Shown here one piece after another: positions 15,345 through 51,021 of a DNA stretch of 64,000 bases. Source of the DNA: Hymenopellis radicata (lineage: Eukaryota; Basidiomycota; Agaricomycetes; Agaricales; Physalacriaceae); the NCBI GenBank assembly GCA_015501595.1, contig JADNRX010000017.1, positions 124,001 through 188,000 of the forward strand, in the 5' to 3' direction. Below the pieces are notes generated by a model that saw only the letters and a program-made list of their open reading frames with translations, was not told the origin of the DNA and did not search any database. The position numbers were made by a program, and so were the translations under genes. Each line of letters begins with the position of its first letter. Positions within the stretch are counted from its first letter, which is position 1.

Positions 15345-15350
15345 TACATA
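15345..15350. repeat. Crypton left attachment core (attL)
   Basis: TACATA joins retrotransposon repeat on the left to Crypton on the right. The intact target with the same core occurs at 46949-46954 and 47167-47172. Confidence 0.88.
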
Positions 15351-15923
15351 TAAATAAGATTTCTGTTACCTGCGAAACGGCGGAAACGTGACGTTCCCCA
15401 GCCAAATCGATCACGTGTGTGTGACCGCGATCACGCTGGCCGTTTCTGCGTCTCGATCCGGTAAACCTTCCCTTTCCGGCGACGCTCACTCTGCCCACCC
15501 TCGACGAGTGCGCGCACTCTGGCGTGACGGACCCTGCCAGAGTGCGCGCACTCAGCTGGTTCGGATCTCGACTGGCTCTTCTTTCCTAACGGACGACCGT
15601 CGGGCTGGACCCGTGCCCTTCCATGATCTCTCTCCGATCGACGAGAGCATCCGAGCCTCCGAGCCGCACACTGCGACCCTCGCTACAACGTCCCGCCCTC
15701 CCGCCGTGGCCGTGCTCTTCCATATTGGCAGGGTCAGCTGAAATGAGCTGGTTTCTCAGGTGTTTAGCATGTGTTATAACCTCTCAATTTGTGTATCGTT
15801 TTCATCCGCGACTTGTCTCGGTCTGACACACACGCTAGGACTCCGGGACCTCTTGCTTCATCCTTCCGCCACTATCCATGACGAACACGCTCGCCAGTGA
15901 GCTCTGCACCACTTCCAAAAATT
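15351..15923. other. Crypton left terminal region
   Basis: Non-coding as far as I can see. It holds GTTACC and GGAAACG motifs near 15363-15399, a CACGTG site and a double palindrome at 15506-15553. It probably contains recombinase binding sites and the promoter of the first gene. The same region in unit 2 is 25839-26412. Confidence 0.5.
15506..15553. repeat. Double palindrome GAGTGCGCGCACTC in inverted 18-bp arms
   Basis: Arms 15506-15523 and 15536-15553 are perfect inverted copies around a 12-nt loop, and each arm contains the 14-bp palindrome GAGTGCGCGCACTC. Located 160 bp inside the left end, it is a candidate protein-binding site. Unit 2: 25994-26041. Confidence 0.8.
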
Positions 15924-17337
15924 ATGGAGACGGCGTGGACCTCTGAGGAGTTGAGGTATGTCCCCATCATTATTTTGCTGCACCTTGTGCTGACACTCAT
16001 TCAAAGTGTACTGTCTAATCGCAAACTCGTCGATATCGCTAAGAGCCAGCCGGACCGGTGGCCGTATAAGGATGCGCGCACTGGAGCGCCCAAGCGACTC
16101 AGCATATCGCACGTCAAGAAAACCTGGCTTGTCAGCACAATCATCGGTGCTGGTTATACGAAGGCCGCTTGTAATGCCGACCGCCGTGTGCCAGTTCGTA
16201 GATCATCTCATCCTCTGTTCGCCAGCTAACTCTTGTCCAGAACGATCCTGCTCGCAAGGTTGTATGTCTCCGTTTCCTTCCCTTACCATCCTTCAATCCT
16301 CACCTGATTCACAGACATTCAAAGTTTATCTCGAAGACGACATTGGCCGCAGAGATCTACGCCGCGTTCTTGTGCAATTCACACTGCCAATTGAGGACTA
16401 TTCTGGCTGCCGCTCAAACCAATGCCGTATTTCGACGGCGAAAATGCTGCGCGCTATCAAGATTTGGATCGAAAGAAGCTATAGTGCTATCGGTGAGTCT
16501 CCTCCGCACTTGACATTTCTCATGTAACCGTATGACCACAGATCCCACTGTTCGTGTTGGGGTCAGGGACGATGTCCGACCAATGTTCATCTCGTACTTC
16601 GCGGAGTGCCCGCTCAACGAAATGGATTCAGCAACTTTAGCCTATGACAGGCTTACCGTCAAACCGCTCGAAGGTGTTTGCATTGTTTTGGAGATAGTGA
16701 GTCAATCTAACCGCTCTCTATATCTCTTCTGATGTGGTCTATCGAGGGTGGTGATGCGGCTTCTGATCATGAAGAAGATGATATGCCGGACATAGATGAT
16801 GACCATTATCGTTCCACTCGTCACCTTGGTAAGGATTCCATTCTCTTTGGCACATTCTTATTCATCATTGCTTGCTTGAGCTAGTCTCACCACTCAAGCC
16901 AACCGACAAGCCTCTTGACATCGCACGTGAGCGCATGGATGCTGATGTCGAGTACATGAAGAGTCAGATTCTTGCGAAACCTAAATACTCGGCCTTCAAA
17001 GCTCTTCGACACCGCGTCGTACCGAATCCATCCATTCCGGAGTACTGGAGTTTCGTCATCAACATTCTTGAAGAGTACGGAAAGGCTCGTAACCCGGAAA
17101 CGGCGAGTCTGGTTCTCTGACACGGAAGTACTTACCTGAATCTCGTAGAACCGGCGCATTTTCCGCAAGACGATTTCGCATGCTATTGGAATCGAGCCGA
17201 CTTGGCTCCGCGAGATTGAGGAGGGTCACCGCCTGCTTCAAGCACATATCGGGCATCCAGCTGTTAAGCGGCATCTTGAGGATACAGAGAGCCACGGAGG
17301 AAGCAAGGGTATGTTAGTTTTTCTTCGAAACTTGTAA
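15924..17337 (+). CDS. Crypton cargo gene A, unknown function (unit 1)
   Basis: Not recognised. A chain of short exons can be joined in frame: 'METAWTSEELR', a 51-bp intron at 15956-16006, 'SVLSNRKLVDIAKSQPDRWP', then 'LVSTIIGAGYTK', an exon with 'TFKVYLEDDIGRRDLRRVLV', 'VRPMFISYFAECPLNEMDSA', an acidic stretch ('SDHEEDDMPDIDDDHY'), and a C-terminal part 'DIARERMDADVEYMKSQILA' to 'WLREIEEGHRLLQAHIGHPA'. The last frame stops at 17335-17337, although a donor just before it could splice onward. It reads towards the nuclease gene 120 bp downstream. No catalytic motif, membrane segment or zinc finger is visible. Its place inside a mobile unit and its preserved frame in both units suggest a function for the element. 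Confidence 0.55.
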
Positions 17338-17459
17338 AATGTAGTATCTATCGTATAGTAGTTGTGTCAATTACTCGTCTACTTTCTTCCCGGTCGTGTG
17401 ATGGATTTGAAAGCAGTCGGATGTCTCTGTTTTCTCATCTGAACTCAGTCTCGACAATC

Positions 17460-19033
17460 ATGGGCGTTGCAGGACTCTGGCCGGTACATCCTTTTCACCA
17501 GTTGCCTCTTCATATTTCTGACTTCGCTTCACAGTTTCTTGAACAGCATGCGCAGAAGACCACACTTCTAGAAGTTGCTGTTAGTGACGGCTTCAATAGT
17601 AATCCTGGGGGCCAGCGTGCACTACGCCTCGGCATCGATGCAAGGTATGTTGAGTCAAACAACAGTTTCTAACAGTGCTGATTTGTCTTCTCTTCAGCAT
17701 CTGGCTACGCCAGGCCTTAGCTTCACCATATGCTGTTTATCACGGAGGCGACACTATGATATCCTTGTATCGTCAATGCGGACGCCTATTTCGACTACCA
17801 ATTATTCCTTTCTTCGTGTTTGATGGTCCCCACCGTGCCTCGAACAAGCGTGGCAAAGCTGTCAAGTACAAATTGCTTCCGAATGAGCAGAATTTCCGGC
17901 AGTTGCTTGAATGTTTTGGGTTTGGCTGGCAAGTGGTCCGTATTGTATCTATTTAAATAAAGTATACTTACTTGTTCCATAGGCTCCGGGCGAAGCAGAG
18001 GCACAGCTTGCCGCTCTATCCCAACTTGGGATTATTGATGCTGTTCTGTCTACTGATGTTGATACTCTTGTCTTTGGAGCTGACCGAATCTTGCGTGTGT
18101 GAGTATACTTGTTTTTCAGTTAATCTCGAATGTTTACTGGTTATCTAACGTAGAACGGGAGTTGACAAGAATTCTGATTCTATTCAGATCTCGAGTTACT
18201 CAGCGTCAGCTTTAGCTGAGAACAACTTTACACGTCCGAACTTGATATTCATTGCTCTCCTGAGCGGTGGCGACTATGCAGTTCGTGTCATGTTACTTCC
18301 AGCTACAGGCAACACTGACTTGATGTAGGATGGTATCACCGGCTGTGGAATCAAGACAGCTGTCGAGCTCACACGTACTGATCTCGGTCCTCGGCTGATT
18401 CACAGTCTACAAGTCCTTCCCATCGAAGAATGGCCGAACTTCTTCGTGCAGTGGCGCGTTGACCTTACGACTATCTTAAGAGACAATCCTGGAGGCACCC
18501 TCACTCGTCAACATCCGGGTCTGGCTGCCGCGGTTCCGGCAGACTTTCCCGATCCCGCCATTCTAGCCCTGTATCTGACTCCAGATACATCTCCATTAGA
18601 CCCACTCGTATGTCTCAACTGGAAGCCACCTTTCATTCCTAGCCTTGCTCGGTTCGCAGAGGTCCATTTCTCGTGGGCTTCCCAGGCCGGGATTCTCAAC
18701 GACTTTGACAAGCACATTTTTGTCGGACTTGCTCTTCGAGAGGTGATTCGGGATGTCCTTGTGAATGATGGAGAGGTCGCAGAGTCTGCCATGGCTCCCT
18801 ACTCGTTTGTCATTACCCCAGTAAGGACTAAGTACTGCAAAAGATCGCAGTGCGAGGCCCGCATCACGCTCGAAATCTCCACCGATCTCATCAAAGCAGT
18901 CGGTTCAAAGTTAGTCGGGCAGCGGACCACACGCCAATCGAAGGAAGAGTTGACGAAGGATTGGGAGGGAGTAAATGCCCCACGGCGTCTGTTTTGGGGT
19001 CCGAAAGCAGTTATTTTGGCGTTACAACCTTGA
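17460..19033 (+). CDS. XPG/GEN1-like structure-specific nuclease (unit 1)
   Basis: Flap/Holliday-junction nuclease fold (FEN1-XPG-GEN1 family). The start 'MGVAGLWP' is the invariant family N-terminus. Motifs in order: 'LRLGIDASIWL' (first metal-binding Asp), 'PFFVFDGPHRASNKRGKA', 'APGEAEAQLAAL' (both Glu), 'VLSTDVDTLVFGA' (Asp pair), 'LSGGDYADGITGCGIKTA' (last Asp and helix-turn-helix loop). All acidic ligands are present. Introns of about 50 bp split 'IDAS', 'WQ-VAPGE', 'RILR-VTGV' and 'GGDY-ADG'. The C-terminal part is less conserved. In this unit an extra G near 18967 extends the protein by about 20 residues beyond the stop used in unit 2. The protein is closer to GEN1/Yen1 than to XPG because the N and I regions lie close together. 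A role in resolving element DNA during excision or replication is inferred. Confidence 0.82.
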
Positions 19034-19479
19034 ATTTCGGCATTGTATACATGATCAAACTGTACTACTAGTATTGCTATGAAACCAGAATTTACGATAA
19101 ATCAGAAGCGAACATATCTGCGTACTCGAAAGGCTGGAAAAAGGAGCAGGGTCGAAGTTCTCATCCTGCTGTAGCTCTGCGCGATATCCGGTAAGCTCCT
19201 CCTCCTCCTGATCTTCCTTCTCTTTCTTCTTGTTGTTCTTCATGTCTTTCAACGGAGACTCGGAATCTGGCCGTAGTCGCTTCTGACAGTTCCGAGTGTG
19301 ACCGCCGCTCTGCGACGTTGCACATATTGGCGTGTCTGCAGCGTCCTCGTAGCCATCGATGGTGCTTTCACCAGTGCTCGACATGCTCCCCTTGCAGCAG
19401 CATTAGTGCGACAACTGTTGGTGAGGGTGTCACAGATGAATTGAGCAATGGTTTCGATAGCCTGAGCGGACCGTGGGTT

Positions 19480-19612
19480 AGAAGCTCATTTCCTTGCGGT
19501 TGTCAAATCCGACACCGAACTCAATCTGAGGGGTAGTGCAAGAACCAAAGTCGCTGGTAGCGCCGGCAATGGCATCTGCTGAACCAGTTCCGGGAACAAA
19601 GTTGGCTTGGTC
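19480..19612 (-). pseudogene. Secreted-protein gene fragment
   Basis: Minus strand reads 'ANFVPGTGSADAIAGATSDF', then 'TPQIEFGVGFDNRKEMSF', resembling a family of small secreted agaricomycete proteins of unknown role. A stop follows directly. Unit 2 has one G less here, which breaks the frame. Confidence 0.4.
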
Positions 19613-19649
19613 GTCAAGGGAACATCGGCGAAGCACTAACACAGCACAG

Positions 19650-19880
19650 CTCCAGCTGGCACCAATATCCCCTCGATTTCTTCGCGCTCCTTTGCGCGTA
19701 TCACATCCTCCGGCTCACCCTGATCATCAACATCCATGGCTGCAGAATCGCCACCGCCAACTAGTCCGCACTTCCTCAATAGTATTTTGCGGCGTTCGGC
19801 ACGACCCTTGTCAATCTCAACTAGACGTCGGTTGACGGGCATAAGACGTGCCTTGAGCTTGTCCGAGGTGATTTCGAGGA
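19650..19880 (-). pseudogene. Ubp6/USP14-like deubiquitinase fragment
   Basis: The peptide 'KLKARLMPVNRRLVEIDKGR' followed by 'AERRKILLRKCGL' and 'AAMDVDDQ' resembles the linker between the catalytic blocks of fungal Ubp6. Neither catalytic Cys nor His box is present. Identity is from memory of the family. Confidence 0.4.
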
Positions 19881-20810
19881 ACTATAATCTTTGCCTTGCG
19901 ACAGACCACCAGTCAACACGGACAAGCGTTCATCTAGACCCGTGCCGAGTTCAAGATCAGTGAAGACAAGGTCGAGAAACAAGTGGCGAACTCTTCACAG
20001 GAGGCCAGGTATGTTCAGAATCAGGAGTAATAATTATATAACAATGTACTATTGAGGTCGACGTTAGTCCCGGCTTCACGGCGAATGAATGTTACTGAAC
20101 ATACCGTATACATATCAGAAGGGAGACGCGAGCATCGCGAGCACAGCGCCGAAGGCTGCTGCTCCCTTCTGTCCTCTGTGAAACAAAGTGTTTCTATACG
20201 AGATATATAAACAAAACCTCGTGGAACGATGAGCCCGGTGAAACGAAAACAACGACATCATCGACGTACCTCTGCTCAACGACAGCGTTGAGATTTCCGA
20301 GCCTCGACAATAGTCATCCCGGTGTACGACATGAGCAAGAGTTCGAGCATAGTCGACTGCACACTCGTCCCCCGGTCCAACCATAAAAGCCGTCTCACAG
20401 TCAAAGGGCCATTCATATCGAACAAGCTAGTTCCGTCCCGCTGTTGTCCGCTGTCTTCCGCGTCTCCAACCGTCATCCACTTTGTGTGTCCACGGATCCA
20501 TCTGCACCCTCCTGATCAGTTCCGGGTTGACATCCGTCTTCTTGCAGATTGAGAAGGTGCGACTAAGTGATCTCGGATGAGATGCGGCTTCGTCCTCGCC
20601 GCCGAATTAGATAAGAGCAGACAACACCAATTGACGAACTGTCTATTGAGTATCATTAGCCCAATATACACATTCGCGGTTCTCGAAGCACTCACCAAAT
20701 CACAGACACTTTATCGCGTACTCGCACCCATAGACCGTAGATGGTCCTTTCGAGCTGTGGCTGTCCATCTCCATAGCACCGACTGCAGCGACATGACCAT
20801 CCTCTGAGGG

Positions 20811-20890
20811 CGCTGAGCCTCATCCTCCGACGCGAACTTCTCAGCCTCGGCAACCATACGGTCGATCTCCTCTTGAGAGAGACGATCTAC
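20811..20890 (-). pseudogene. Hsp70 (BiP-type) fragment
   Basis: Minus strand reads 'DRLSQEEIDRMVAEAEKFAS', then 'EDEAQR', the start of the Hsp70 C-terminal lid domain. Only this short block is present. Unit 2 has one deletion and one insertion within it. Confidence 0.7.
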
Positions 20891-21023
20891 AAGGATTTGT
20901 CAATACAAGCGCTGTGATAGTTGGAATGAACGTACGGCGCTGAATGTGACCGCGCCTCGCCATGAAACGTTGCGCGCCTTGTCTGCAGCGTCCTCGTGGC
21001 CATTGATGGTGCTTTCACCAGCG

Positions 21024-21160
21024 AGTGAGACGAGGGAGGCGCGTCCCTGGTGAAACTCGACGCCTTCTTTGTTGAAGTTGGAGTGGTAGACGCTGTTAAG
21101 TTTGAGGATATATGCGTCCCGTTGAGGTTTGAAGGTTTCCCAGCTAAAGTGGGCCTCGGG
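21024..21160 (-). pseudogene. Glutathione reductase fragment
   Basis: Minus strand reads 'FSWETFKPQRDAYILKLNSV', then 'YHSNFNKEGVEF', then 'HQGRASLVS', matching the segment of glutathione reductase after the redox-active disulfide. The FAD and disulfide motifs are absent. It ends at the 43-bp repeated motif. Confidence 0.65.
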
Positions 21161-21959
21161 ACGAGCAGTATCTTGGAGTGATAAGAGCGAGTTTGGATGC
21201 CTGCTTGACAGAAGGGGTAGACGGGCTGACGACTGTTGTCGTTCTTCGGTGGCCAAGTCTACGTGATTTCCCGTTAGTTTTAGAAAAGGATGCCCAACAA
21301 AACGCGCTCACATCTGATGTCTGGAAGTCATGCCGGGAGTTCGTGTCGGTGGAGGTCGGTGGTGTAAAGGACAATGACTGATGCTCGGCCAACCCAGCAC
21401 CCGTCTCTGGAAGTAGGCTCAAGGTCGGCCCGCTATCAACAGAGGCGCGGTGCTGGGGTGGCGGGCAGACAGGACTGCAAATATTAAGGAAACACCAGTG
21501 TCGGAGTGTGTGTCTTCGAAGGCGGTGGAATTGACCGCGGTGGAGGAAAGCTGTGGTGGCGACACGATGGGACTTGACATGTCCGATATTCTTTGGCGGC
21601 GCTTTAGGGTCTCATCTTAGCACGCTGCCAAGCAAGAGAAGCAAGGCACTTACCTGGACAGGCGCCCTCGACCACAAGGAATGCGCTTCTCGTCCGTGAG
21701 CAAGCCGAAAAAGTCCACATTGACCGGTGCGGTATTCACCGCCTTGATGTCGGGCTTCTTGATGGCTTTTGAGGAGCGCAGGCGGTAGTAGCTGGTGAAG
21801 TCGACCGCGCAGGTCCCAAACGACTCTAGTGGGCGCTCATGTCCGAACCCTTGCGTAAACGGGTAATGACTTGAGCAGCAGCAGTGCCCGCCTGCTTCAA
21901 GGACAGCTGGGTCAAAAATCTTCGTGCGACAAGTGATGGTAGGTGGACGGCAGTTAAGC

Positions 21960-22027
21960 CGGCAAATTTTGGCTTGATTTTAACAGACTAGTGACGTAGT
22001 CTGTTAAAATCAAGCCAAAATTTGCCG
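21960..22027. repeat. Perfect hairpin, 31-bp arms, 6-nt loop
   Basis: Arms 21960-21990 and 21997-22027 are exact inverted complements around GTGACG. It lies 65 bp past the recombinase stop codon. It could form a cruciform, a terminator-like RNA hairpin or a replication/resolution site. Unit 2: 32453-32520, identical. Confidence 0.9.
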
Positions 22028-22091
22028 ACGGCTTTTCGACAGGTCTGACGCGTCAATCTCGCGTTGATTTAAGTATAAAAAGGTATAATAT

Positions 22092-25000
22092 TCAGGATAT
22101 ACTACTACGACGAGCATGATTGACAATATCTGCAAGCTTGATCTTGCATTTCTCCTTTGCCTTCGCTTCCTCTCCCTTCTTCGAGTCCTGCAGAGCCGCG
22201 ATAAAACTCTTCGCCGTTGGGTACTTCTTCGTTGGAACGTAATGATCCTTCAGGAAGTCCAGTGCGCGATCCGCATTCCAACCCTCAAGTGCAACAAGTT
22301 CCCTGATCAAATGAACAACCTTCATTCTCTTCGACAGCTCAGTCCTCACAGATCCGCGTCCCTTCCGCCAATCGTTACCCCATGTGCTTTCGATGTTCTC
22401 CACTGACAGTTGGCCATTGATACCGTCCTTGAATTCCCTCCAGATATCCGAGATAGAGAGACATAGGCCGTTGGGTGGAAGGTAAAACTCGTATTGGGGA
22501 ATCCACAACCTTTGTGATTCGTTCCAGGTGAAGTCATGTTGTTGAAGCTGACGCGGTTGATATAGTGACTCGAGAACTGCGATATGGTCTAGTTGGGCAT
22601 CGCGAGTGTGAAGGTTGTCGATGTTAAGGTTAAATACTGAGGAGTGATAGACTTGACCAGAGCGACTGACGGTACCAGTCGAGCTGGAGGTCGTTACGCC
22701 GAGACCTTGCGGGGGAGAAGGATTGTCGGAAGGTAAAATGGGGTGTGGGGGCGTGTTCTGCAACCCAGTACACGTGTGGTCATTAGCTGGTTGAGTGGGA
22801 GACGAGTCTGGCATGGCGTTCAATCTGAGAGACTGACTGGTTGTGGTTTTTCTGAGGGGAATCTAGTACCAAATGTCAGACACTAATCATAAGTATGATG
22901 TTTAACAGAACCTACTTTTTGACGTTTAGTCGGTTGTTCTGGTTCGTCTTTACGTACGCGCTTCACCGATTTCGAGTTGTTGTTCCCAGTTCCTAGATGC
23001 TCCGAGATCGTCTGCATTGTTTGCTCGAGTTGCTTAACTTGTGCCCGCAGCATAGTCGTTTCCGTAGTGTACGTCCCCATTGTACCATGCAACATGCCGG
23101 CAATCTCCTGCGGTAACTTCTCAAGCTGAACGCGAGATAACAGGTCCGCTTTTTTGAGAGCCTCGCGGGACTCCATGGCGAAGGAACGAAAAGGTGAACC
23201 GTCGAAGGGTGCAAACTGCCATAAAGGGCATTTGGGGTACTTGAAGAAGAGGACAGCGGCGTCTTGTATCACAACCGTACGGAGAAAAGCGAGGAGTTCA
23301 AGAAAAAGGCGGAGTCGGTGATCATCACCACGTTCGGGACCATATGTAGCTTTTTGGACGTCTAGCTTATGCAGCTCGGTCTCGATCCACGGGAATAAAA
23401 GGCTTGAGAGTGATGATGGCACATCTGAGGCAGAAGTGAATACATGGAAATCGGAGTAGTAAACTTATTCTACGTACCAAGTTTTCCACGCGGCAGATTG
23501 TATGAATTGTGATTGCCTCCATTCCAACCTGCCATGGCAAGAATGGCATCAACAGGAAGAGATTGCATGTACCGTGGGGCGGAACCAGCGTTCATAGTCG
23601 TCCACTGCCCAAGTTTTGTAATACCCTCATGTGATGCCCCAGCGTACATAGCAGTTTCGCCCACATAGTGTCGACCGGCATGTGTAGCATTCTTGAGTTT
23701 GAGACCGGCATCTTCGTGGATTGCTTTAGTGCGCTTTAAATGGGCTATATATGCATGTTAGTTGTGTAGTAGCAGTTTCGAGAGGAAAGACTTACTGTCG
23801 TACGACAATGGCTCATAGTCAGAGTTCCCGCCTCGGAAGAGGTGTAATCCGTACCATTTACGTCGTCCAAAAGCTCCAAAGTTAGGTTCAACCGAGAAGT
23901 CGGGTGCCGGCCGTTTCAGAAGGTGGTATTCACCAAAGAAGTGAAATCCCAATCCTCCGATACAGCAGATCTCCGGAATGCGATGGCGAATGCTACCATG
24001 GCGCTCCAGATTACCATCAGTGTTCGTCTTGCCCTGATTGGCAATAAATATCACACACTACATGCAGAGGTCAGTTAAGGAATCATACTGAAAGAGTATC
24101 TTACTGGAGCATAAACATTGTACCCTTGATCAATGAGACGGAGCTGATAGAGCTCTAGATCTGACAGCTGCAGTATTCGCGAACTATCCCCTCGAAATGC
24201 TGTTGAGCATGAGAGCAAGATCATCTCGCGATCGCGCAATGCCGTTGCGAGCTTCTGACGCGTCATGGACTGTGCTGTTGCATCATTCTCGAATGCGCAT
24301 ATTGGTCGTGTAGATATGCGGATGAGTTCGTCGTCCTTGTAGGTAGCTGAAACAAAGTATTAGAGAGTGTCTGATGATATCTGCGAATGCGAACCTTCCG
24401 TCATGCCGTGCGCTTTCATTTCGTGCGAGTCTTCAACCCGTTTTGGCCGTTCTGCGCGAGCCTGTTTTTCAAAGATCTTGATTCGGGGATCTGAGCGTAA
24501 TGAAGTCTTGGCCTCCGGACAGTTGTAATACTCCGGTCGATGTTGATTCTTCTTTCGAAAGTCTTCAAGGGCGTTGATTATTTGCTCGATAGTTTTGTCG
24601 CCGATGGAACTGTCACTGATCTCCTTGCCGGTAAATGCTGCACGCTATATGACAGTGAGACAGATGGTGCGTTGAAGTTATAATGTGCATACCCTTTTTC
24701 GTTCACTTTCGTGTTGGAGAAACACTGCTACTCGCGGCGCGGTAATCGGCTCTGCAGGAAGAGTTGCCTGTCCGTTTTGAATGCAGGTTTGTTGAAAGAC
24801 AGGCCAGTAGTCGAAATAGTTCTTCACTTGACGCGCGTACGCTCCGTCTGTCGCCTTTTTCTGTCCCAACTTCTTCTGGATGTCGACACGCATATTATGT
24901 GTCTGGAGCTCAAGTGCGGCATGTGCATCCATGACAGGTAGGTCATTTGAAGACGAATCTGCATCTGCAGACTGTTCTGGGGCAGTCGCGTTACCCTTCT

Positions 25001-25352
25001 GTGCTGGGACGCGTGAGTCGGGCACGGATGAACTTTGCTGGGAAGAGGAAGGAATATCACTCCGAGAGGGCGCGCCGCATGCATCAGGAAGATCGAGAGG
25101 TGCAGAAAGGGAATTGGACTTGGAAGAGCTCCCTGGAACACCGCCTGGAATCGATTTGGACGAGAAGTCTGAAGATGAGTTTGGGAGTTGAAACTCCCAG
25201 TCATCGGGAAGGGATGTCATAAGCCCAAGTTTGATAGCCTTCGATAGAGAGGGGATTGGGGGATCTGTCGGGGTATACAGAGCCTGAAAACGGATCCCCT
25301 TTTCAAAGACATGGTGATTGTGGACACAGTGGACGGCCGATGAGCTGGCCAT
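22092..25352 (-). CDS. Crypton tyrosine recombinase with GCR1_C-like domain (unit 1)
   Basis: About 980 aa after splicing six introns of roughly 50 bp, with no break. The N-terminal part is Ser/Pro-rich, then a helical SAM-like region ('GAYARQVKNYFDYWPVFQ'). The catalytic domain shows the first Arg ('AFRGDSSRILQL'), 'THAGRHYVGETAMYAG' (HxxR), a conserved Trp ('TKLGQW') and the nucleophile Tyr in 'RYMQSLPVDAILAMAGW'. A coiled coil ('AQVKQLEQTMQTISEHLG') and a basic signal ('KRVRKDEPEQPTKRQK') follow. The C-terminal 'FTWNESQRLWIPQYEFYLPP' to 'ESTWGNDWRKGRGSVR' is a GCR1_C DNA-binding domain, as in fungal Cryptons. It should cut and join the TACATA core in excision and integration. The start at 25352 is the first ATG in frame. 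A Starship DUF3435 captain is less likely because of the GCR1_C domain. Confidence 0.87.
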
Positions 25353-25832
25353 TGTTCGACGCGAGGCCAATCTATGCGGCAGACATTGTCAGATAATAGA
25401 TTTTAGAAAACAAAGAAACTGCGCACAGGGGGGATGCTTTCAAATTCGCGTTCGTACGCGTCCACAATCCACAATCAACAAAGCGAGATCTTGAAGTCTG
25501 AAGCAATGCAAGCAGCAGTATGAGAAAAAAGTAGCTTGAATTTGGCGTAGAACAGCGAGTGAGGTATGGTAGATAGTTAACAAGAAGAGGTATAGAATGC
25601 CTGGCGCGTGAAGCCGCCATAGCGATCCGGGGTCCAACACACAACTCGCGCTGACGGGCGTAAGTGATCGAGAGGCCGCGTGGGAGAACAATGGGCAGAG
25701 CCACCGGTGGCAGTTACCTTTTTGGGGTAACAAAGGCGAACCAACTCATACTGGAGCGGAAACGTTTCCAAAGGCAAGGGGAAACGTTACCACCGCCGTT
25801 ACTGCACCAGGCGGTAACGCCCATATATGAAC
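25353..25832. other. Crypton right terminal region
   Basis: Contains the recombinase promoter and a cluster of short palindromes near the end: CCACCGGTGG (25701-25710), GTTACC facing GGTAAC (25713-25731), GGAAACGTTTCC (25758-25769) and GGCGGTAACGCC near 25810. Related motifs occur at the left end, so these are candidate recombinase binding sites. Unit 2: 35846-36325. Confidence 0.55.
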
Positions 25833-26041: not shown

Positions 26042-26412
26042 AGCTGGTTCGGATCTCGACTGGCTCTTCTTTCCTAACGGACGACCGTCGGGCTGGACCC
26101 GTGCCCTTCCATGATCTCTCTCCGATCGACGAGAGCATCCGAGCCTCCGAGCCGCACACTGCGACCCTCGCTACAACGTCCCGCCCTCCCGCCGTGGCCG
26201 TGCTCTTCCATATTGGCAGGGTCAGCTGAAATGAGCTGGTTTCTCAGGTGTTTAGCATGTGTTATAACCTCTCAATTTGTGTATCGTTTTCATCCGCGAC
26301 TTGTCTCGGTCTGACACACACGCTAGGACTCCGGGGACCTCTTGCTTCATCCTTCCGCCACTATCCATGACGAACACGCTCGCCAGTGAGCTCTGCACCA
26401 CTTCCAAAAATT

Positions 26413-27826
26413 ATGGAGACGGCGTGGACCTCTGAGGAGTTGAGGTATGTCCCCATCATTATTTTGCTGCACCTTGTGCTGACACTCATTCAAAGTGTAC
26501 TGTCTAATCGCAAACTCGTCGATATCGCTAAGAGCCAGCCGGACCGGTGGCCGTATAAGGATGCGCGCACTGGAGCGCCCAAGCGACTCAGCATATCGCA
26601 CGTCAAGAAAACCTGGCTTGTCAGCACAATCATCGGTGCTGGTTATACGAAGGCCGCTTGTAATGCCGACCGCCGTGTGCCAGTTCGTAGATCATCTCAT
26701 CCTCTGTTCGCCAGCTAACTCTTGTCCAGAACGATCCTGCTCGCAAGGTTGTATGTCTCCGTTTCCTTCCCTTACCATCCTTCAATCCTCACCTGATTCA
26801 CAGACATTCAAAGTTTATCTCGAAGACGACATTGGCCGCAGAGATCTACGCCGCGTTCTTGTGCAATTCACACTGCCAATTGAGGACTATTCTGGCTGCC
26901 GCTCAAACCAATGCCGTATTTCGACGGCGAAAATGCTGCGCGCTATCAAGATTTGGATCGAAAGAAGCTATAGTGCTATCGGTGAGTCTCCTCTGCACTT
27001 GACATTTCTCATGTAACCGTATGACCACAGATCCCACTGTTCGTGTTGGGGTCAGGGACGATGTCCGACCAATGTTCATCTCGTACTTCGCGGAGTGCCC
27101 GCTCAACGAAATGGATTCAGCAACTTTAGCCTATGACAGGCTTACCGTCAAACCGCTCGAAGGTGTTTGCATTGTTTTGGAGATAGTGAGTCAATCTAAC
27201 CGCTCTCTATATCTCTTCTGATGTGGTCTATCGAGGGTGGTGATGCGGCTTCTGATCATGAAGAAGATGATATGCCGGACATAGATGATGACCATTATCG
27301 TTCCACTCGTCACCTTGGTAAGGATTCCATTCTCTTTGGCACATTCTTATTCATCATTGCTTGCTTGAGCTAGTCTCACCACTCAAGCCAACCGACAAGC
27401 CTCTTGACATCGCACGTGAGCGCATGGATGCTGATGTCGAGTACATGAAGAGTCAGATTCTTGCGAAACCTAAATACTCGGCCTTCAAAGCTCTTCGACA
27501 CCGCGTCGTACCGAATCCATCCATTCCGGAGTACTGGAGTTTCGTCATCAACATTCTTGAAGAGTACGGAAAGGCTCGTAACCCGGAAACGGCGAGTCTG
27601 GTTCTCTGACACGGAAGTACTTACCTGAATCTCGTAGAACCGGCGCATTTTCCGCAAGACGATTTCGCATGCTATTGGAATCGAGCCGACTTGGCTCCGC
27701 GAGATTGAGGAGGGTCACCGCCTGCTTCAAGCACATATCGGGCATCCAGCTGTTAAGCGGCATCTTGAGGATACAGAGAGCCACGGAGGAAGCAAGGGTA
27801 TGTTAGTTTTTCTTCGAAACTTGTAA
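26413..27826 (+). CDS. Crypton cargo gene A (unit 2)
   Basis: Same exon chain as in unit 1. The only difference I see is C to T at 26994, which falls in an intron. Function unknown. Confidence 0.55.
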
Positions 27827-27948
27827 AATGTAGTATCTATCGTATAGTAGTTGTGTCAATTACTCGTCTACTTTCTTCCCGGTCGTGTGATGGATTTGAA
27901 AGCAGTCGGATGTCTCTGTTTTCTCATCTGAACTCAGTCTCGACAATC

Positions 27949-29462
27949 ATGGGCGTTGCAGGACTCTGGCCGGTACATCCTTTTCACCAGTTGCCTCTTC
28001 ATATTTCTGACTTCGCTTCACAGTTTCTTGAACAGCATGCGCAGAAGACCACACTTCTAGAAGTTGCTGTTAGTGACGGCTTCAATAGTAATCCTGGGGG
28101 CCAGCGTGCACTACGCCTCGGCATCGATGCAAGGTATGTTGAGTCAAACAACAGTTTCTAACAGTGCTGATTTGTCTTCTCTTCAGCATCTGGCTACGCC
28201 AGGCCTTAGCTTCACCATATGCTGTTTATCACGGAGGCGACACTATGATATCCTTGTATCGTCAATGCGGACGCCTATTTCGACTACCAATTATTCCTTT
28301 CTTCGTGTTTGATGGTCCCCACCGTGCCTCGAACAAGCGTGGCAAAGCTGTCAAGTACAAATTGCTTCCGAATGAGCAGAATTTCCGGCAGTTGCTTGAA
28401 TGTTTTGGGTTTGGCTGGCAAGTGGTCCGTATTGTATCTATTTAAATAAAGTATACTTACTTGTTCCATAGGCTCCGGGCGAAGCAGAGGCACAGCTTGC
28501 CGCTCTATCCCAACTTGGGATTATTGATGCTGTTCTGTCTACTGATGTTGATACTCTTGTCTTTGGAGCTGACCGAATCTTGCGTGTGTGAGTATACTTG
28601 TTTTTCAGTTAATCTCGAATGTTTACTGGTTATCTAACGTAGAACGGGAGTTGACAAGAATTCTGATTCTATTCAGATCTCGAGTTACTCAGCGTCAGCT
28701 TTAGCTGAGAACAACTTTACACGTCCGAACTTGATATTCATTGCTCTCCTGAGCGGTGGCGACTATGCAGTTCGTGTCATGTTACTTCCAGCTACAGGCA
28801 ACACTGACTTGATGTAGGATGGTATCACCGGCTGTGGAATCAAGACAGCTGTCGAGCTCACACGTACTGATCTCGGTCCTCGGCTGATTCACAGTCTACA
28901 AGTCCTTCCCATCGAAGAATGGCCGAACTTCTTCGTGCAGTGGCGCGTTGACCTTACGACTATCTTAAGAGACAATCCTGGAGGCACCCTCACTCGTCAA
29001 CATCCGGGTCTGGCTGCCGCGGTTCCGGCAGACTTTCCCGATCCCGCCATTCTAGCCCTGTATCTGACTCCAGATACATCTCCATTAGACCCACTCGTAT
29101 GTCTCAACTGGAAGCCACCTTTCATTCCTAGCCTTGCTCGGTTCGCAGAGGTCCATTTCTCGTGGGCTTCCCAGGCCGGGATTCTCAACGACTTTGACAA
29201 GCACATTTTTGTCGGACTTGCTCTTCGAGAGGTGATTCGGGATGTCCTTGTGAATGATGGAGAGGTCGCAGAGTCTGCCATGGCTCCCTACTCGTTTGTC
29301 ATTACCCCAGTAAGGACTAAGTACTGCAAAAGATCGCAGTGCGAGGCCCGCATCACGCTCGAAATCTCCACCGATCTCATCAAAGCAGTCGGTTCAAAGT
29401 TAGTCGGGCAGCGGACCACACGCCAATCGAAGGAAGAGTTGACGAAGGATTGGGAGGAGTAA
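27949..29462 (+). CDS. XPG/GEN1-like nuclease (unit 2)
   Basis: Same protein as in unit 1 through the catalytic core. The G run near 29456 is one base shorter, so the frame ends at 'KDWEE' with TAA at 29460-29462, about 20 residues earlier. This is probably the original end, because the added tail in unit 1 looks non-coding. Confidence 0.82.
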
Positions 29463-29539
29463 ATGCCCCACGGCGTCTGTTTTGGGGTCCGAAAGCAGTT
29501 ATTTTGGCGTTACAACCTTGAATTTCGGCATTGTATACA

Positions 29540-32452
29540 TGATCAAACTGTACTACTAGTATTGCTATGAAACCAGAATTTACGATAAATCAGAAGCGAA
29601 CATATCTGCGTACTCGAAAGGCTGGAAAAAGGAGCAGGGTCGAAGTTCTCATCCTGCTGTAGCTCTGCGCGATATCCGGTAAGCTCCTCCTCCTCCTGAT
29701 CTTCCTTCTCTTTCTTCTTGTTGTTCTTCATGTCTTTCAACGGAGACTCGGAATCTGGCCGTAGTCGCTTCTGACAGTTCCGAGTGTGACCGCCGCTCTG
29801 CGACGTTGCACATATTGGCGTGTCTGCAGCGTCCTCGTAGCCATCGATGGTGCTTTCACCAGTGCTCGACATGCTCCCCTTGCAGCAGCATTAGTGCGAC
29901 AACTGTTGGTGAGGGTGTCACAGATGAATTGAGCAATGGTTTCGATAGCCTGAGCGGACCGTGGGTTAGAAGCTCATTTCCTTGCGGTTGTCAAATCCGA
30001 CACCGAACTCAATCTGAGGGTAGTGCAAGAACCAAAGTCGCTGGTAGCGCCGGCAATGGCATCTGCTGAACCAGTTCCGGGAACAAAGTTGGCTTGGTCG
30101 TCAAGGGAACATCGGCGAAGCACTAACACAGCACAGCTCCAGCTGGCACCAATATCCCCTCGATTTCTTCGCGCTCCTTTGCGCGTATCACATCCTCCGG
30201 CTCACCCTGATCATCAACATCCATGGCTGCAGAATCGCCACCGCCAACTAGTCCGCACTTCCTCAATAGTATTTTGCGGCGTTCGGCACGACCCTTGTCA
30301 ATCTCAACTAGACGTCGGTTGACGGGCATAAGACGTGCCTTGAGCTTGTCCGAGGTGATTTCGAGGAACTATAATCTTTGCCTTGCGACAGACCACCAGT
30401 CAACACGGACAAGCGTTCATTCTAGACCCGTGCCGAGTTCAAGATCAGTGAAGACAAGGTCGAGAAACAAGTGGCGAACTCTTCACAGGAGGCCAGGTAT
30501 GTTCAGAATCAGGAGTAATAATTATATTAACAATGTACTATTGAGGTCGACGTTAGTCCCGGCTTCACGGCGACATGAATGTTACTGAACATACCGTATA
30601 CATATCAGAAGGGAGACGCGAGCATCGCGAGCACAGCGCCGAAGGCTGCTGCTCCCTTCTGTCCTCTGTGAAACAAAGTGTTTCTATACGAGATTATATA
30701 AACAAAAACCTCGTGAACGATGAGCCCGGTGAAACGAAAACAACGACATCATCGACGTACCTCTGCTCAACGACAGCGTTGAGATTTCCGAGCCTCGACA
30801 ATAGTCATCCCGGTGTACGACATGAGCAAGAGTTCGAGCATAGTCGACTGCACACTCGTCCCCGGTCCAACCATAAAAGCCGTCTCACAGTCAAAGGGCC
30901 ATTCATATCGAACAAGCTAGTTCCGTCCCGCTGTTGTCCGCTGTCTTCCGCGTCTCCAACCGTCATCCACTTTGTGTGTCCACGGATCCATCTGCACCCT
31001 CCTGATCAGTTCCGGGTTGACATCCGTCTTCTTGCAGATTGAGAAGGTGCGACTAAGTGATCTCGGATGAGATGCGGCTTCGTCCTCGCCGCCGAATTAG
31101 ATAAGAGCAGACAACACCAATTGACGAACTGTCTATTGAGTATCATTAGCCCAATATACACATTCGCGGTTCTCGAAGCACTCACCAAATCACAGACACT
31201 TTATCGCGTACTCGCACCATAGACCGTTAGATGGTCCTTTCGAGCTGTGGCTGTCCATCTCCATAGCACCGACTGCAGCGACATGACCATCCTCTGAGGG
31301 CGCTGAGCCTCATCTCCGACTGCGAACTTCTCAGCCTCGGCAACCATACGGTCGATCTCCTCTTGAGAGAGACGATCTACAAGGATTTGTCAATACAAGC
31401 GCTGTGATAGTTGGAATGAACGTACGGCGCTGAATGTGACCGCGCCTCGCCATGAAACGTTTGCGCGCCTTGTCTGCAGCGTCCTCGTGGCCATTGATGG
31501 TTGCTTTCACCAGCGAGTGAGACGAGGGAGGCGCGTCCCTGGTGAAACTCGACGCCTTCTTTGTTGAAGTTGGAGTGGTAGACGCTGTTAAGTTTGAGGA
31601 TATATGCGTCCCGTTGAGGTTTGAAGGTTTCCCAGCTAAAGTGGGCCTCGGGACGAGCAGTATCTTGGAGTGATAAGAGCGAGTTTGGATGCCTGCTTGA
31701 CAGAAGGGGTAGACGGGCTGACGACTGTTGTCGTTCTTCGGTGGCCAAGTCTACGTGATTTCCCGTTAGTTTTAGAAAAGGATGCCCAACAAAAACGCGC
31801 TCACATCTGATGTCTGGAAGTCATGCCGGGAGTTCGTGTCGGTGGAGGTCGGTGGTGTAAAGGACAATGACTGATGCTCGGCCAACCCAGCACCCGTCTC
31901 TGGAAGTAGGCTCAAGGTCGGCCCGCTATCAACAGAGGCGCGGTGCTGGGGTGGCGGGCAGACAGGACTGCAAATATTAAGGAAACACCAGTGTCGGAGT
32001 GTGTGTCTTCGAAGGCGGTGGAATTGACCGCGGTGGAGGAAAGCTGTGGTGGCGACACGATGGGACTTGACATGTCCGATATTCTTTGGCGGCGCTTTAG
32101 GGTCTCATCTTAGCACGCTGCCAAGCAAGAGAAGCAAGGCACTTACCTGGACAGGCGCCCTCGACCACAAGGAATGCGCTTCTCGTCCGTGAGCAAGCCG
32201 AAAAAGTCCACATTGACCGGTGCGGTATTCACCGCCTTGATGTCGGGCTTCTTGATGGCTTTTGAGGAGCGCAGGCGGTAGTAGCTGGTGAAGTCGACCG
32301 CGCAGGTCCCAAACGACTCTAGTGGGCGCTCATGTCCGAACCCTTGCGTAAACGGGTAATGACTTGAGCAGCAGCAGTGCCCGCCTGCTTCAAGGACAGC
32401 TGGGTCAAAAATCTTCGTGCGACAAGTGATGGTAGGTGGACGGCAGTTAAGC
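29540..32452 (-). pseudogene. Mosaic of host gene fragments (unit 2)
   Basis: Counterpart of 19050-21959 with about 15 one-base gains or losses. At the secreted-protein, Hsp70 and GESTING-motif positions the unit 1 reading keeps the protein frame or residues and the unit 2 reading does not, so the unit 2 stretch is either derived or carries consensus errors. Confidence 0.55.
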
Positions 32453-32520
32453 CGGCAAATTTTGGCTTGATTTTAACAGACTAGTGACGTAGTCTGTTAA
32501 AATCAAGCCAAAATTTGCCG
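32453..32520. repeat. Perfect 31-bp-arm hairpin (unit 2)
   Basis: Identical to the hairpin of unit 1, loop GTGACG, 65 bp past the recombinase stop. Confidence 0.9.
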
Positions 32521-32584
32521 ACGGCTTTTCGACAGGTCTGACGCGTCAATCTCGCGTTGATTTAAGTATAAAAAGGTATAATAT

Positions 32585-35500
32585 TCAGGATATACTACTA
32601 CGACGAGCATGATTGACAATATCTGCAAGCTTGATCTTGCATTTCTCCTTTGCCTTCGCTTCCTCTCCCTTCTTCGAGTCCTGCAGAGCCGCGATAAAAC
32701 TCTTCGCCGTTGGGTACTTCTTCGTTGGAACGTAATGATCCTTCAGGAAGTCCAGTGCGCGATCCGCATTCCAACCCTCAAGTGCAACAAGTTCCCTGAT
32801 CAAATGAACAACCTTCATTCTCTTCGACAGCTCAGTCCTCACAGATCCGCGTCCCTTCCGCCAATCGTTACCCCATGTGCTTTCGATGTTCTCCACTGAC
32901 AGTTGGCCATTGATACCGTCCTTGAATTCCCTCCAGATATCCGAGATAGAGAGACATAGGCCGTTGGGTGGAAGGTAAAACTCGTATTGGGGAATCCACA
33001 ACCTTTGTGATTCGTTCCAGGTGAAGTCATGTTGTTGAAGCTGACGCGGTTGATATAGTGACTCGAGAACTGCGATATGGTCTAGTTGGGCATCGCGAGT
33101 GTGAAGGTTGTCGATGTTAAGGTTAAATACTGAGGAGTGATAGACTTGACCAGAGCGACTGACGGTACCAGTCGAGCTGGAGGTCGTTACGCCGAGACCT
33201 TGCGGGGGAGAAGGATTGTCGGAAGGTAAAATGGGGTGTGGGGGCGTGTTCTGCAACCCAGTACACGTGTGGTCATTAGCTGGTTGAGTGGGAGACGAGT
33301 CTGGCATGGCGTTCAATCTGAGAGACTGACTGGTTGTGGTTTTTCTGAGGGGAATCTAGTACCAAATGTCAGACACTAATCATAAGTATGATGTTTAACA
33401 GAACCTACTTTTTGACGTTTAGTCGGTTGTTCTGGTTCGTCTTTACGTACGCGCTTCACCGATTTCGAGTTGTTGTTCCCAGTTCCTAGATGCTCCGAGA
33501 TCGTCTGCATTGTTTGCTCGAGTTGCTTAACTTGTGCCCGCAGCATAGTCGTTTCCGTAGTGTACGTCCCCATTGTACCATGCAACATGCCGGCAATCTC
33601 CTGCGGTAACTTCTCAAGCTGAACGCGAGATAACAGGTCCGCTTTTTTGAGAGCCTCGCGGGACTCCATGGCGAAGGAACGAAAAGGTGAACCGTCGAAG
33701 GGTGCAAACTGCCATAAAGGGCATTTGGGGTACTTGAAGAAGAGGACAGCGGCGTCTTGTATCACAACCGTACGGAGAAAAGCGAGGAGTTCAAGAAAAA
33801 GGCGGAGTCGGTGATCATCACCACGTTCGGGACCATATGTAGCTTTTTGGACGTCTAGCTTATGCAGCTCGGTCTCGATCCACGGGAATAAAAGGCTTGA
33901 GAGTGATGATGGCACATCTGAGGCAGAAGTGAATACATGGAAATCGGAGTAGTAAACTTATTCTACGTACCAAGTTTTCCACGCGGCAGATTGTATGAAT
34001 TGTGATTGCCTCCATTCCAACCTGCCATGGCAAGAATGGCATCAACAGGAAGAGATTGCATGTACCGTGGGGCGGAACCAGCGTTCATAGTCGTCCACTG
34101 CCCAAGTTTTGTAATACCCTCATGTGATGCCCCAGCGTACATAGCAGTTTCGCCCACATAGTGTCGACCGGCATGTGTAGCATTCTTGAGTTTGAGACCG
34201 GCATCTTCGTGGATTGCTTTAGTGCGCTTTAAATGGGCTATATATGCATGTTAGTTGTGTAGTAGCAGTTTCGAGAGGAAAGACTTACTGTCGTACGACA
34301 ATGGCTCATAGTCAGAGTTCCCGCCTCGGAAGAGGTGTAATCCGTACCATTTACGTCGTCCAAAAGCTCCAAAGTTAGGTTCAACCGAGAAGTCGGGTGC
34401 CAGCCGTTTCAGAAGGTGGTATTCACCAAAGAAGTGAAATCCCAATCCTCCGATACAGCAGATCTCCGGAATGCGATGGCGAATGCTACCATGGCGCTCC
34501 AGATTACCATCAGTGTTCGTCTTGCCCTGATTGGCAATAAATATCACACACTACATGCAGAGGTCAGTTAAGGAATCATACTGAAAGAGTATCTTACTGG
34601 AGCATAAACATTGTACCCTTGATCAATGAGACGGAGCTGATAGAGCTCTAGATCTGACAGCTGCAGTATTCGCGAACTATCCCCTCGAAATGCTGTTGAG
34701 CATGAGAGCAAGATCATCTCGCGATCGCGCAATGCCGTTGCGAGCTTCTGACGCGTCATGGACTGTGCTGTTGCATCATTCTCGAATGCACATATTGGTC
34801 GTGTAGATATGCGGATGAGTTCGTCGTCCTTGTAGGTAGCTGAAACAAAGTATTAGAGAGTGTCTGATGATATCTGCGAATGCGAACCTTCCGTCATGCC
34901 GTGCGCTTTCATTTCGTGCGAGTCTTCAACCCGTTTTGGCCGTTCTGCGCGAGCCTGTTTTTCAAAGATCTTGATTCGGGGATCTGAGCGTAATGAAGTC
35001 TTGGCCTCCGGACAGTTGTAATACTCCGGTCGATGTTGATTCTTCTTTCGAAAGTCTTCAAGGGCGTTGATTATTTGCTCGATAGTTTTGTCGCCGATGG
35101 AACTGTCACTGATCTCCTTGCCGGTAAATGCTGCACGCTATATGACAGTGAGACAGATGGTGCGTTGAAGTTATAATGTGCATACCCTTTTTCGTTCACT
35201 TTCGTGTTGGAGAAACACTGCTACTCGCGGCGCGGTAATCGGCTCTGCAGGAAGAGTTGCCTGTCCGTTTTGAATGCAGGTTTGTTGAAAGACAGGCCAG
35301 TAGTCGAAATAGTTCTTCACTTGACGCGCGTACGCTCCGTCTGTCGCCTTTTTCTGTCCCAACTTCTTCTGGATGTCGACACGCATATTATGTGTCTGGA
35401 GCTCAAGTGCGGCATGTGCATCCATGACAGGTAGGTCATTTGAAGACGAATCTGCATCTGCAGACTGTTCTGGGGCAGTCGCGTTACCCTTCTGTGCTGG

Positions 35501-35845
35501 GACGCGTGAGTCGGGCACGGATGAACTTTGCTGGGAAGAGGAAGGAATATCACTCCGAGAGGGCGCGCCGCATGCATCAGGAAGATCGAGAGGTGCAGAA
35601 AGGGAATTGGACTTGGAAGAGCTCCCTGGAACACCGCCTGGAATCGATTTGGACGAGAAGTCTGAAGATGAGTTTGGGAGTTGAAACTCCCAGTCATCGG
35701 GAAGGGATGTCATAAGCCCAAGTTTGATAGCCTTCGATAGAGAGGGGATTGGGGGATCTGTCGGGGTATACAGAGCCTGAAAACGGATCCCCTTTTCAAA
35801 GACATGGTGATTGTGGACACAGTGGACGGCCGATGAGCTGGCCAT
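32585..35845 (-). CDS. Crypton tyrosine recombinase with GCR1_C-like domain (unit 2)
   Basis: Intact and the same as unit 1 except for Leu instead of Pro in 'LLKRLAPDF' and one further base change. Both copies keep the Arg, HxxR and Tyr residues, so either could still be active. Confidence 0.87.
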
Positions 35846-36325
35846 TGTTCGACGCGAGGCCAATCTATGCGGCAGACATTGTCAGATAATAGATTTTAGA
35901 AAACAAAGAAACTGCGCACAGGGGGGATGCTTTCAAATTCGCGTTCGTACGCGTCCACAATCCACAATCAACAAAGCGAGATCTTGAAGTCTGAAGCAAT
36001 GCAAGCAGCAGTATGAGAAAAAAGTAGCTTGAATTTGGCGTAGAACAGCGAGTGAGGTATGGTAGATAGTTAACAAGAAGAGGTATAGAATGCCTGGCGC
36101 GTGAAGCCGCCATAGCGATCCGGGGTCCAACACACAACTCGCGCTGACGGGCGTAAGTGATCGAGAGGCCGCGTGGGAGAACAATGGGCAGAGCCACCGG
36201 TGGCAGTTACCTTTTTGGGGTAACAAAGGCGAACCAACTCATACTGGAGCGGAAACGTTTCCAAAGGCAAGGGGAAACGTTACCACCGCCGTTACTGCAC
36301 CAGGCGGTAACGCCCATATATGAAC

Positions 36326-36331
36326 TACATA
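36326..36331. repeat. Crypton right attachment core (attR)
   Basis: TACATA, followed at once by the target continuation 'AACTATAATCTCC' also found at 46955 and 47173. Confidence 0.88.

Positions 36332-48551: not shown

Positions 48552-51021
<2,470 letters not shown>

What the first reader, a model, noticed from the sequence alone, without database searches (positions are those of the whole stretch)
15345..36331. Two tandem Crypton-type elements with attL, attP and attR all readable
Two 10.49-kb units lie head to tail. TACATA stands at the left end (15345), between the units (25833) and at the right end (36326). The flanks join to form a sequence present without insertion at 46925-46975 and again near 47167. 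The bases either side of the core differ between element and target, so the exchange is limited to 6 bp. This fits integration of a circle by the encoded tyrosine recombinase, twice or as a dimer. Such complete evidence for a Crypton in an agaricomycete, at over 10 kb, is unusual.
Basis: partly seen in the sequence, partly recalled or inferred. Interest (0 to 1): 0.92.

Follow-up and report, generated by a model that had tools for sequence, protein, structure and literature searches.

The report
Self-duplicating mushroom Crypton carrying resolvase-like nuclease
In the mushroom Hymenopellis radicata two nearly identical 10.5-kb copies of a Crypton (a jumping gene that moves with a tyrosine recombinase) sit head to tail, as do some other members of the family elsewhere in the genome, and the element also carries a gene that looks like a Holliday-junction-cutting nuclease, which offers a natural system for learning how eukaryotic Cryptons really move.

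Summary
Units 15345-25832 and 25833-36325 are 99.8% identical, with TACATA at both outer ends and the junction; the joined flanks reproduce unoccupied sites at 46949, 47167 and on contig C584. The element is a CryptonF-type transposon of Hymenopellis radicata: a spliced 986-aa protein with recombinase (NDC10_II) and GCR1_C domains, catalytic residues kept.

Of 17 loci compared, 6 are tandem, including ~770-bp non-autonomous dimers and a trimer. In the 5 tandem loci where units were compared they are 99.4-100% identical; short copies at different loci are 75-98%. So the second unit most likely derives from the first. (2) Unoccupied sites place the exchange at the A|C step of TA|CATA: attL keeps the target's bases before it (0 of 14 carry the element's AAC), attR the element's. 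The target looks like a CNTA half-site, not a strict 6-bp match. (3) The element carries a GEN1/Yen1-type XPG nuclease gene and an orphan gene, both with signs of purifying selection. A second, divergent Crypton family and two Panaeolus proteins also link recombinase and nuclease. No paper in the open library held both 'Crypton' and 'XPG'.

The parts
15345..25832 (+). Crypton unit 1 (10,488 bp)
   Evidence: 99.81% identical to unit 2; ends shared with other genomic copies
25833..36325 (+). Crypton unit 2 (10,493 bp)
15345..15350 (+). attL core TA|CATA; the bases before it belong to the target
25824..25840 (+). inter-unit junction = attP: TATATG-AACTA-CATATA, an inverted repeat with 5-bp spacer
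   Evidence: sequence; the same junction GAACTACATATAAA is seen in the other tandem copies
36317..36331 (+). attR: TATATGAACTA from the element, then CATA from the target
22092..25352 (-). tyrosine recombinase gene, unit 1: 7 exons, 986 aa, NDC10_II + GCR1_C
32585..35845 (-). tyrosine recombinase gene, unit 2: 7 exons, 986 aa, one aa difference (P434L)
17460..19033 (+). XPG/GEN1-type nuclease gene, unit 1: 5 exon blocks, 456 aa (hand-made model)
   Evidence: own-genome protein P0009
27949..29518 (+). XPG/GEN1-type nuclease gene, unit 2 (extent to which the unit-1 protein maps); a one-base gap near 29456 shifts the frame at the C-terminal tail
15924..17316 (+). orphan gene 1, unit 1: 8 exon blocks, 348 aa (hand-made model), no Pfam family
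26413..27805 (+). orphan gene 1, unit 2
21960..22027 (.). palindrome, unit 1 (31-bp arms, 6-nt loop) just past the recombinase stop codon; role unknown
   Evidence: similar palindrome in C1329 and C25
32453..32520 (.). the same palindrome, unit 2
46949..46954 (+). unoccupied target site (TACATA, CCG before, AACTATAAT after)
47167..47172 (+). second unoccupied copy of the target site

Best explanation
The locus is a tandem dimer of an autonomous CryptonF-type tyrosine-recombinase transposon. Read from sequence: the element's end CATATAAA is joined to target DNA on the left, and its end TATATGAACTA to a target CNTA half-site on the right, with the exchange at the A|C step; the second unit is far closer to the first than to copies elsewhere. 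Inferred: after one insertion, the recombinase acts again on the insertion's own ends. Either attL of one sister chromatid recombines with attR of the other (giving a tandem dimer with a perfect attP junction on one chromatid and an empty site on the other), or an excised or replicated circle re-enters the attL or attR of the sister copy. Every insertion carries pre-made partner sites at both ends, so tandems form often. The XPG gene encodes a GEN1/Yen1-type structure-specific nuclease kept by selection; its likeliest role is processing the recombination (Holliday-junction) intermediate of this reaction, which is untested.
For: Recombinase: 986 aa spliced, NDC10_II E 1.9e-30 and GCR1_C E 6.1e-13; R355 and H493 invariant in all 9 aligned proteins, R496, W519, Y530 present here. 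Ends: 17 of 17 attR compared read TATATGAACTA|CNTA, 14 of them CATA (constancy of CNTA is partly built in by how the copies were found); 14 attL have target bases before CATATAAA, 0 of 14 with the element's AAC, 8 of 14 with TA at positions 1-2 (P about 5e-7 against 1/16). Unoccupied sites match the joined flanks at the site for C485, C1207, C489, C519, C1081 and, in 2 of 4 paralogues examined, C1329. Tandems at 6 of 17 loci; identity within 5 of them 99.4-100% (C302 not compared), short copies at different loci 75-98%. Nuclease: XPG_I E 1.2e-18, best solved relatives 5cnq and 6grb, E 2e-35 and 3e-35, with acidic motifs kept. Third-codon-position excess for recombinase, nuclease and gene 1.
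Against: No circle or excision event was observed. Unit differences are mostly one-base gaps, so some may be sequencing error, and the 10.5-kb dimer rests on the assembly. Two degenerate copies (C1048, which reads CAAT, and C618) do not fit the CNTA rule. At C774 and C629 the unoccupied paralogues differ at the site itself, and for C1329 one paralogue (C560) has CATA where the insertion has CCTA and another (C543) lacks part of the site. In 6 of 12 contigs with recombinase hits no nuclease match lies inside the element (C293 is cut by its contig end). The nucleases linked to Cryptons do not form one supported clade.
Confidence: 0.77

Rival explanations
1. A dimeric circle, formed by replication or by recombination of two circles, integrated once; no second event at the locus was needed.
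For: Gives near-identical units and a perfect attP junction. Tandem arrays are a documented product of a bacterial tyrosine-recombinase element, SGI1 (passages of PMC2297512).
Against: A trimer also exists (C1207), which needs a multimeric circle or a further step. Not separable by sequence from intersister exchange.
Confidence: 0.25
2. Two independent integrations of circles from different genomic copies, the second landing in the first.
For: Both attL and attR contain a CATA half-site and so are plausible targets.
Against: Units within the 5 tandem loci compared are 99.4-100% identical whereas short copies at different loci are 75-98%; the relatives of the window's element found in the genome are more diverged over most of their length.
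Confidence: 0.05
3. Ordinary unequal homologous crossing-over or segmental duplication made the tandem, without the recombinase.
For: The target region itself holds local direct repeats, also on either side of the insertion.
Against: Junctions are exactly element end to element end, with the same attP sequence at C485, C25, C489, C1207, C302 and C1081. The flanks share only a few bases with the element ends, so homologous crossover is not expected to make the first duplication at that point.
Confidence: 0.05
4. Assembly artefact: one unit placed twice.
For: Differences between units are mainly one-base gaps.
Against: Three substitutions also separate the units; ~770-bp tandem arrays recur on several contigs.
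Confidence: 0.07

Closest known systems
CryptonF transposons of fungi and oomycetes (Kojima and Jurka 2011, PMC3212892, passages read)
   Same: Recombinase plus GCR1_C domain; short terminal direct repeat (6 bp in most fungal ones); no terminal inverted repeats; proposed circular intermediate.
   Different: Here there is an XPG/GEN1-type nuclease and an orphan gene (the passages I read name a Mariner fusion and a C48 peptidase as additional parts, not a nuclease). Tandem arrays are frequent. Unoccupied sites resolve the exchange to the A|C step with a CNTA half-site rather than a strict 6-bp repeat.
SGI1, a mobilizable bacterial island with a tyrosine recombinase (PMC2297512, passages read)
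   Same: Tandem arrays joined by attP, made with its own integrase.
   Different: Bacterial, mobilised by conjugation, two specific sites, 18-bp att; here a eukaryotic transposon with many short targets.
GEN1/Yen1 Holliday junction resolvases (best solved relatives 5cnq, 5co8, 6grb; that these are Chaetomium GEN1 is recalled)
   Same: XPG_N + XPG_I, conserved acidic motifs, 125 bits.
   Different: The element protein is short (456 aa) and encoded in a transposon; the precomputed Pfam of its own-genome model lists no PF18380, which many of the fungal relatives carry (that PF18380 is the GEN1 C-terminal domain is recalled).
Starships (giant fungal elements with tyrosine recombinases; search listings only)
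   Same: Fungal, recombinase-encoded, carry further genes.
   Different: Listings describe them as Pezizomycotina elements; here the recombinase domain type (NDC10_II/GCR1_C) and the size differ.

Membership tests
CryptonF | Protein with tyrosine-recombinase domain and GCR1_C | tested here: met
   NDC10_II E 1.9e-30, GCR1_C E 6.1e-13 in one spliced model
CryptonF | Catalytic R-H-R-Y | tested here: met
   R355, H493, R496, (W519) Y530 aligned with relatives
CryptonF | Short (4-6 bp) terminal direct repeat, no TIRs or LTRs | tested here: met
   TACATA at each end at the window locus, no long terminal repeat found; only partly repeated at other loci
CryptonF | Circular extrachromosomal intermediate | not testable with these tools
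   Only inferred from the attP-like junction
GEN1/Yen1 (XPG/Rad2) nucleases | XPG_N and XPG_I with acidic catalytic residues | tested here: met
   Pfam, alignment to 5cnq, motifs located
GEN1/Yen1 (XPG/Rad2) nucleases | Holliday-junction cleavage | not testable with these tools
   Needs an assay
GEN1/Yen1 (XPG/Rad2) nucleases | Groups inside cellular GEN1 in a tree | tested here: inconclusive
   Crypton-linked groups fall apart; deep branches weak
Starship | DUF3435-type captain recombinase | tested here: not met
   Pfam scan of the recombinase at E up to 0.1 lists NDC10_II and GCR1_C, no DUF3435 (that Starship captains bear DUF3435 is recalled)

The most novel reading that the evidence does not exclude
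A lineage of Cryptons in mushrooms carries its own Holliday-junction resolvase and uses a reaction unlike the standard two-strand tyrosine-recombinase exchange: a single strand exchange at the A|C boundary of a half-site target, with the junction resolved by the element's GEN1-type nuclease. This leaves attL always with the target's spacer and attR always with the element's. Repeated action on the element's own ends between sister chromatids then amplifies it in place as tandem arrays that non-autonomous copies share.
Probability: 0.27. Interest if true: 0.88.

Novelty: new variant of a known kind. Interest (0 to 1): 0.72.

Why it matters
The transposition of Cryptons has been proposed by analogy with bacteria (PMC3212892, passages). 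This genome offers occupied sites, unoccupied sites, tandem junctions and an intact recombinase gene of one family together, so the exchange point, target rule and tandem formation become testable. If the linked nuclease acts in transposition, a eukaryotic transposon has recruited a resolvase for a step that textbook tyrosine recombinases do themselves. It could also be one reason, untested here, why XPG-like genes are numerous in this genome (matches on 29 contigs).

Tried and rejected
Giant Crypton: contig C25 has right ends 34,986 bp apart, but its interior holds long LTR-retrotransposon-type ORFs (ORF list, recognised by eye, not by a family search), with nuclease and recombinase at the two ends, so I read it as a normal element loaded with nested insertions and dropped the idea.

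RNA families: no Rfam match at gathering score in 15000-37000. Middle block 21350-21500 as an element-specific signal: it matches 38 places in the genome including the window's two, many outside recognised Crypton loci, so I make no claim. Gene 1 by database: only two H. radicata relatives. Solved-structure search with the first 730 residues of the recombinase: nothing up to E 1. Fold of gene 1 relatives: machine busy three times, not obtained. Common origin of all Crypton-linked nucleases: the tree did not support it (39 rows, chosen by me from 60 hits plus window and locus sequences). A gene-1-like stretch at C562:37768-38078 (28% over 104 columns; 35% of 84 codons) lies outside the homology boundary of that family; left open.

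Literature: searches. In one search all 4 papers holding two of Crypton, XPG and Agaricomycetes were listed, and none held both Crypton and XPG. Several other listings were capped (30 of 1,699, 12 of 13, 12 of 5,413, 8 of 1,130, 10 of 14); no title or abstract start shown told of a Crypton with such a nuclease or of Crypton tandem arrays. The library lacks most subscription journals; the original Crypton paper (Goodwin et al., reference in PMC3212892) was not seen.

Rows merged or dropped before counts: C502 and C793 merged with C1081, and C38 with C688, because the flanks are the same; C603 and C158 (right-end motif without element sequence) and C1048 and C618 (degenerate ends) are not among the 17. 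For C302 only one unit was cut out, so its units were not compared. Unoccupied sites were sought for 10 insertions (7 of 10 gave a match across the join: 5 agree at the site, C1329 only in 2 of the 4 paralogues examined, and 2 are ambiguous; two further C1329 paralogues listed there, C763 and C821, were not examined) and for C485.

Full report
CHECK. The two units, the three TACATA copies and the unoccupied site are as described. Unit 1 is 15345-25832, unit 2 is 25833-36325; they differ by 3 substitutions and 17 one-base gaps, 16 of which fall between 18967 and 21298. The joined flanks match 46746-47059 over 314 bp with 4 mismatches and no gap, and a further unoccupied copy is on contig C584. 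The target is itself a locally repeated sequence.

HOST. The nuclease encoded in the window matches a protein of Hymenopellis radicata at 99% on a contig of the same length as the window's contig (383,866 bp). A paper read by passages (PMC8480192) lists the genome of strain IJFM A160; which sequencing method served this strain was not in the passages, and that this is the same assembly is inferred.

GENES. Minus strand: a seven-exon gene (introns 47-53 bp, all GT-AG) encodes 986 aa in both units with one difference. Pfam: NDC10_II over residues 340-639 and GCR1_C over 866-935. Catalytic residues R355, H493, R496, W519, Y530 are present; R355 and H493 are invariant in nine aligned proteins. Plus strand: gene 1 (348 aa, no Pfam family) and an XPG-type nuclease (456 aa; XPG_I 1.2e-18, XPG_N 2.4e-5). 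Best solved relatives are 5cnq (2e-35) and 6grb (3e-35), 'nuclease-like protein', which I recall as Chaetomium GEN1, ahead of XPG, FEN1 and EXO1 entries. Acidic motifs are kept. In unit 2 a one-base gap shifts the frame of the last residues. Gene 1 and nuclease lie in the same order in C774, C1145, C25, C1329 and C836; the recombinase was seen with them in C774, C25 and C1329 (C1145 is cut by its contig end, and no recombinase match was found in the 10 kb of C836 read). Differences pile up at third codon positions for all three genes (overlapping matches were counted more than once and stops in introns were read through).

COPIES AND ENDS. The own genome (75.5 Mb, 1405 contigs) holds relatives with conserved ends. 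Both ends were read in C774 (10.8 kb between ends) and C1329 (18.7 kb); C25, C293, C1116, C653, C1145, C1062, C796 and C836 were seen in part or are truncated. Short non-autonomous copies are 755-783 bp including both cores. The right-end pattern ATATGAACTACNTA occurs 31 times, reversed control 4.

TANDEMS. Of 17 loci with a readable right end (after merging obvious duplicates), 6 are tandem: C485 (2 units), C489 (2), C1081 with its look-alikes C502 and C793 (2), C1207 (3, the middle one interrupted by about 1.7 kb of other DNA), C302 (at least 2), C25 (at least 2). Of the 11 loci with both outer ends read, 4 are tandem; for the other loci the number of units is a lower bound. All junctions read GAACTACATATAAA. 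Within-locus identity: C485 99.8%, C489 99.9%, C1081 and C793 100%, C1207 100%, C25 99.4% over 3,438 bp; C302 was not compared. Between loci, short units are 75-98% identical (the three look-alikes counted once). So the second unit most likely comes from the first.

EXCHANGE POINT. attP as read from tandem junctions is TATATG-AACTA-CATATA. In 14 attL the five bases before CATATAAA are not the element's: none has AAC, 8 have TA next to the step, 6 have GA (3), AG, AT or AA. In 17 attR the element's TATATGAACTA is followed by target sequence beginning CNTA: CATA 14, CCTA 2, CGTA 1. CNTA has a background frequency of about 1.1% per position in the window outside the element; part of this constancy is built in, because the search pattern asked for CNTA and alignments had to reach the end. 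Unoccupied sites confirm the reading: C489 GGGTGA|CATATAACC, C519 CTCATAA|CATAATC, C1207 TCCTCTA|CATATCTC, C1081 AATGTTA|CATATTGA, C1329 GTCCAG|CCTACC in C567 and C330 (C560 has CATACC there and C543 lacks part of the site). In C489, C519 and C1329 the target differs from the element inside the 'core', and the bases left of the step in attL are the target's while those in attR are the element's. The paralogues of C774 and C629 differ at the site itself and decide nothing. Two degenerate copies, C1048 (CAAT) and C618, do not fit. A standard exchange with staggered cuts several bases apart would leave mismatched overlaps that could resolve either way; none of 14 attL shows the other outcome. This may mean single-strand exchange, or biased repair; the data do not choose.

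NUCLEASE LINK. In H. radicata 6 of 12 contigs with recombinase-domain hits carry a nuclease match within the same element: C485, C774, C1329, C25 (one family) and C562, C985. C562 and C985 are a second family, 84-92% identical to each other over about 7 kb, with other ends (left GG|[T/C]ATGATG, right CTCTAT[G/A]TAT, inferred from where their similarity stops) and with recombinase and nuclease stretches 26-50% identical to those of the window. C293, C653, C1116, C507, C735 and C1127 show no nuclease match inside; C293 is cut by its contig end, in C653 a nuclease match lies beyond the element's right end, and C507, C735 and C1127 were not fetched. Two Panaeolus cyanescens proteins join NDC10_II (one also GCR1_C) and XPG_I in one model on one strand; this could be a fusion or two neighbouring genes predicted as one. 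Relatives in Psilocybe, Mycena and Gymnopilus have recombinase plus GCR1_C only, but a protein table shows no neighbours. Nuclease-like matches occur on 29 contigs of this genome (79 rows), 7 of which also gave recombinase hits. The linked groups do not cluster, so either the association is old or it arose more than once.

MECHANISM. Read from sequence: architecture, end sequences, exchange position, target half-site, near-identity of tandem units, signs of selection on three genes. Inferred: excision circle; that the encoded recombinase does the work, also for short copies; that tandems come from att x att exchange between sister chromatids or local re-entry; that the nuclease acts on recombination intermediates.

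VERDICT. A real, well-documented CryptonF tandem in an agaric, with a new variant of content (resolvase-like nuclease plus orphan gene) and an unusually sharp view of how insertion works. Searches of the open literature (several listings capped) showed no such case; subscription papers were not searchable.

Noticed in passing
window 43272-44423 and 44750-45904: A 1.15-kb inverted repeat, 93.8% identical, with about 330 bp between the arms.
   Followed up: no
window 48760-49542 (+): ORF with a class-II glutamine amidotransferase domain (GATase_6 4e-15), about 1.6 kb from the unoccupied target copies.
   Followed up: no
window 21350-21500 and 31843-31993: Block with 38 matches in the genome including these two; eleven further long copies of 85-95% identity are partly at Crypton or nuclease loci, shorter copies elsewhere.
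   Followed up: partly
window 21960-22027 and 32453-32520: Palindrome with 31-bp arms just past the recombinase stop codon, also in C1329 and C25.
   Followed up: no
L050 (C562) 2901-10012 and the matching stretch of C985: Second Crypton family of about 7 kb with recombinase and nuclease but different end sequences.
   Followed up: partly
L019, L047, L048 (C25:106200-133999): Interior of the C25 element holds long retrotransposon-like ORFs, recognised by eye, and a 100% identical 403-bp pair.
   Followed up: partly
L046/L049/L028 (C1207:102041-106120): Trimer of short units; the middle unit is interrupted by about 1.7 kb with 3 bp repeated at the break. Contig C827 holds the unoccupied site with 100% identity over 300 bp.
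   Followed up: partly
L050 (C562) 268-579: Gene-1-like stretch, 35% of 84 codons, outside the homology boundary of the second family.
   Followed up: no
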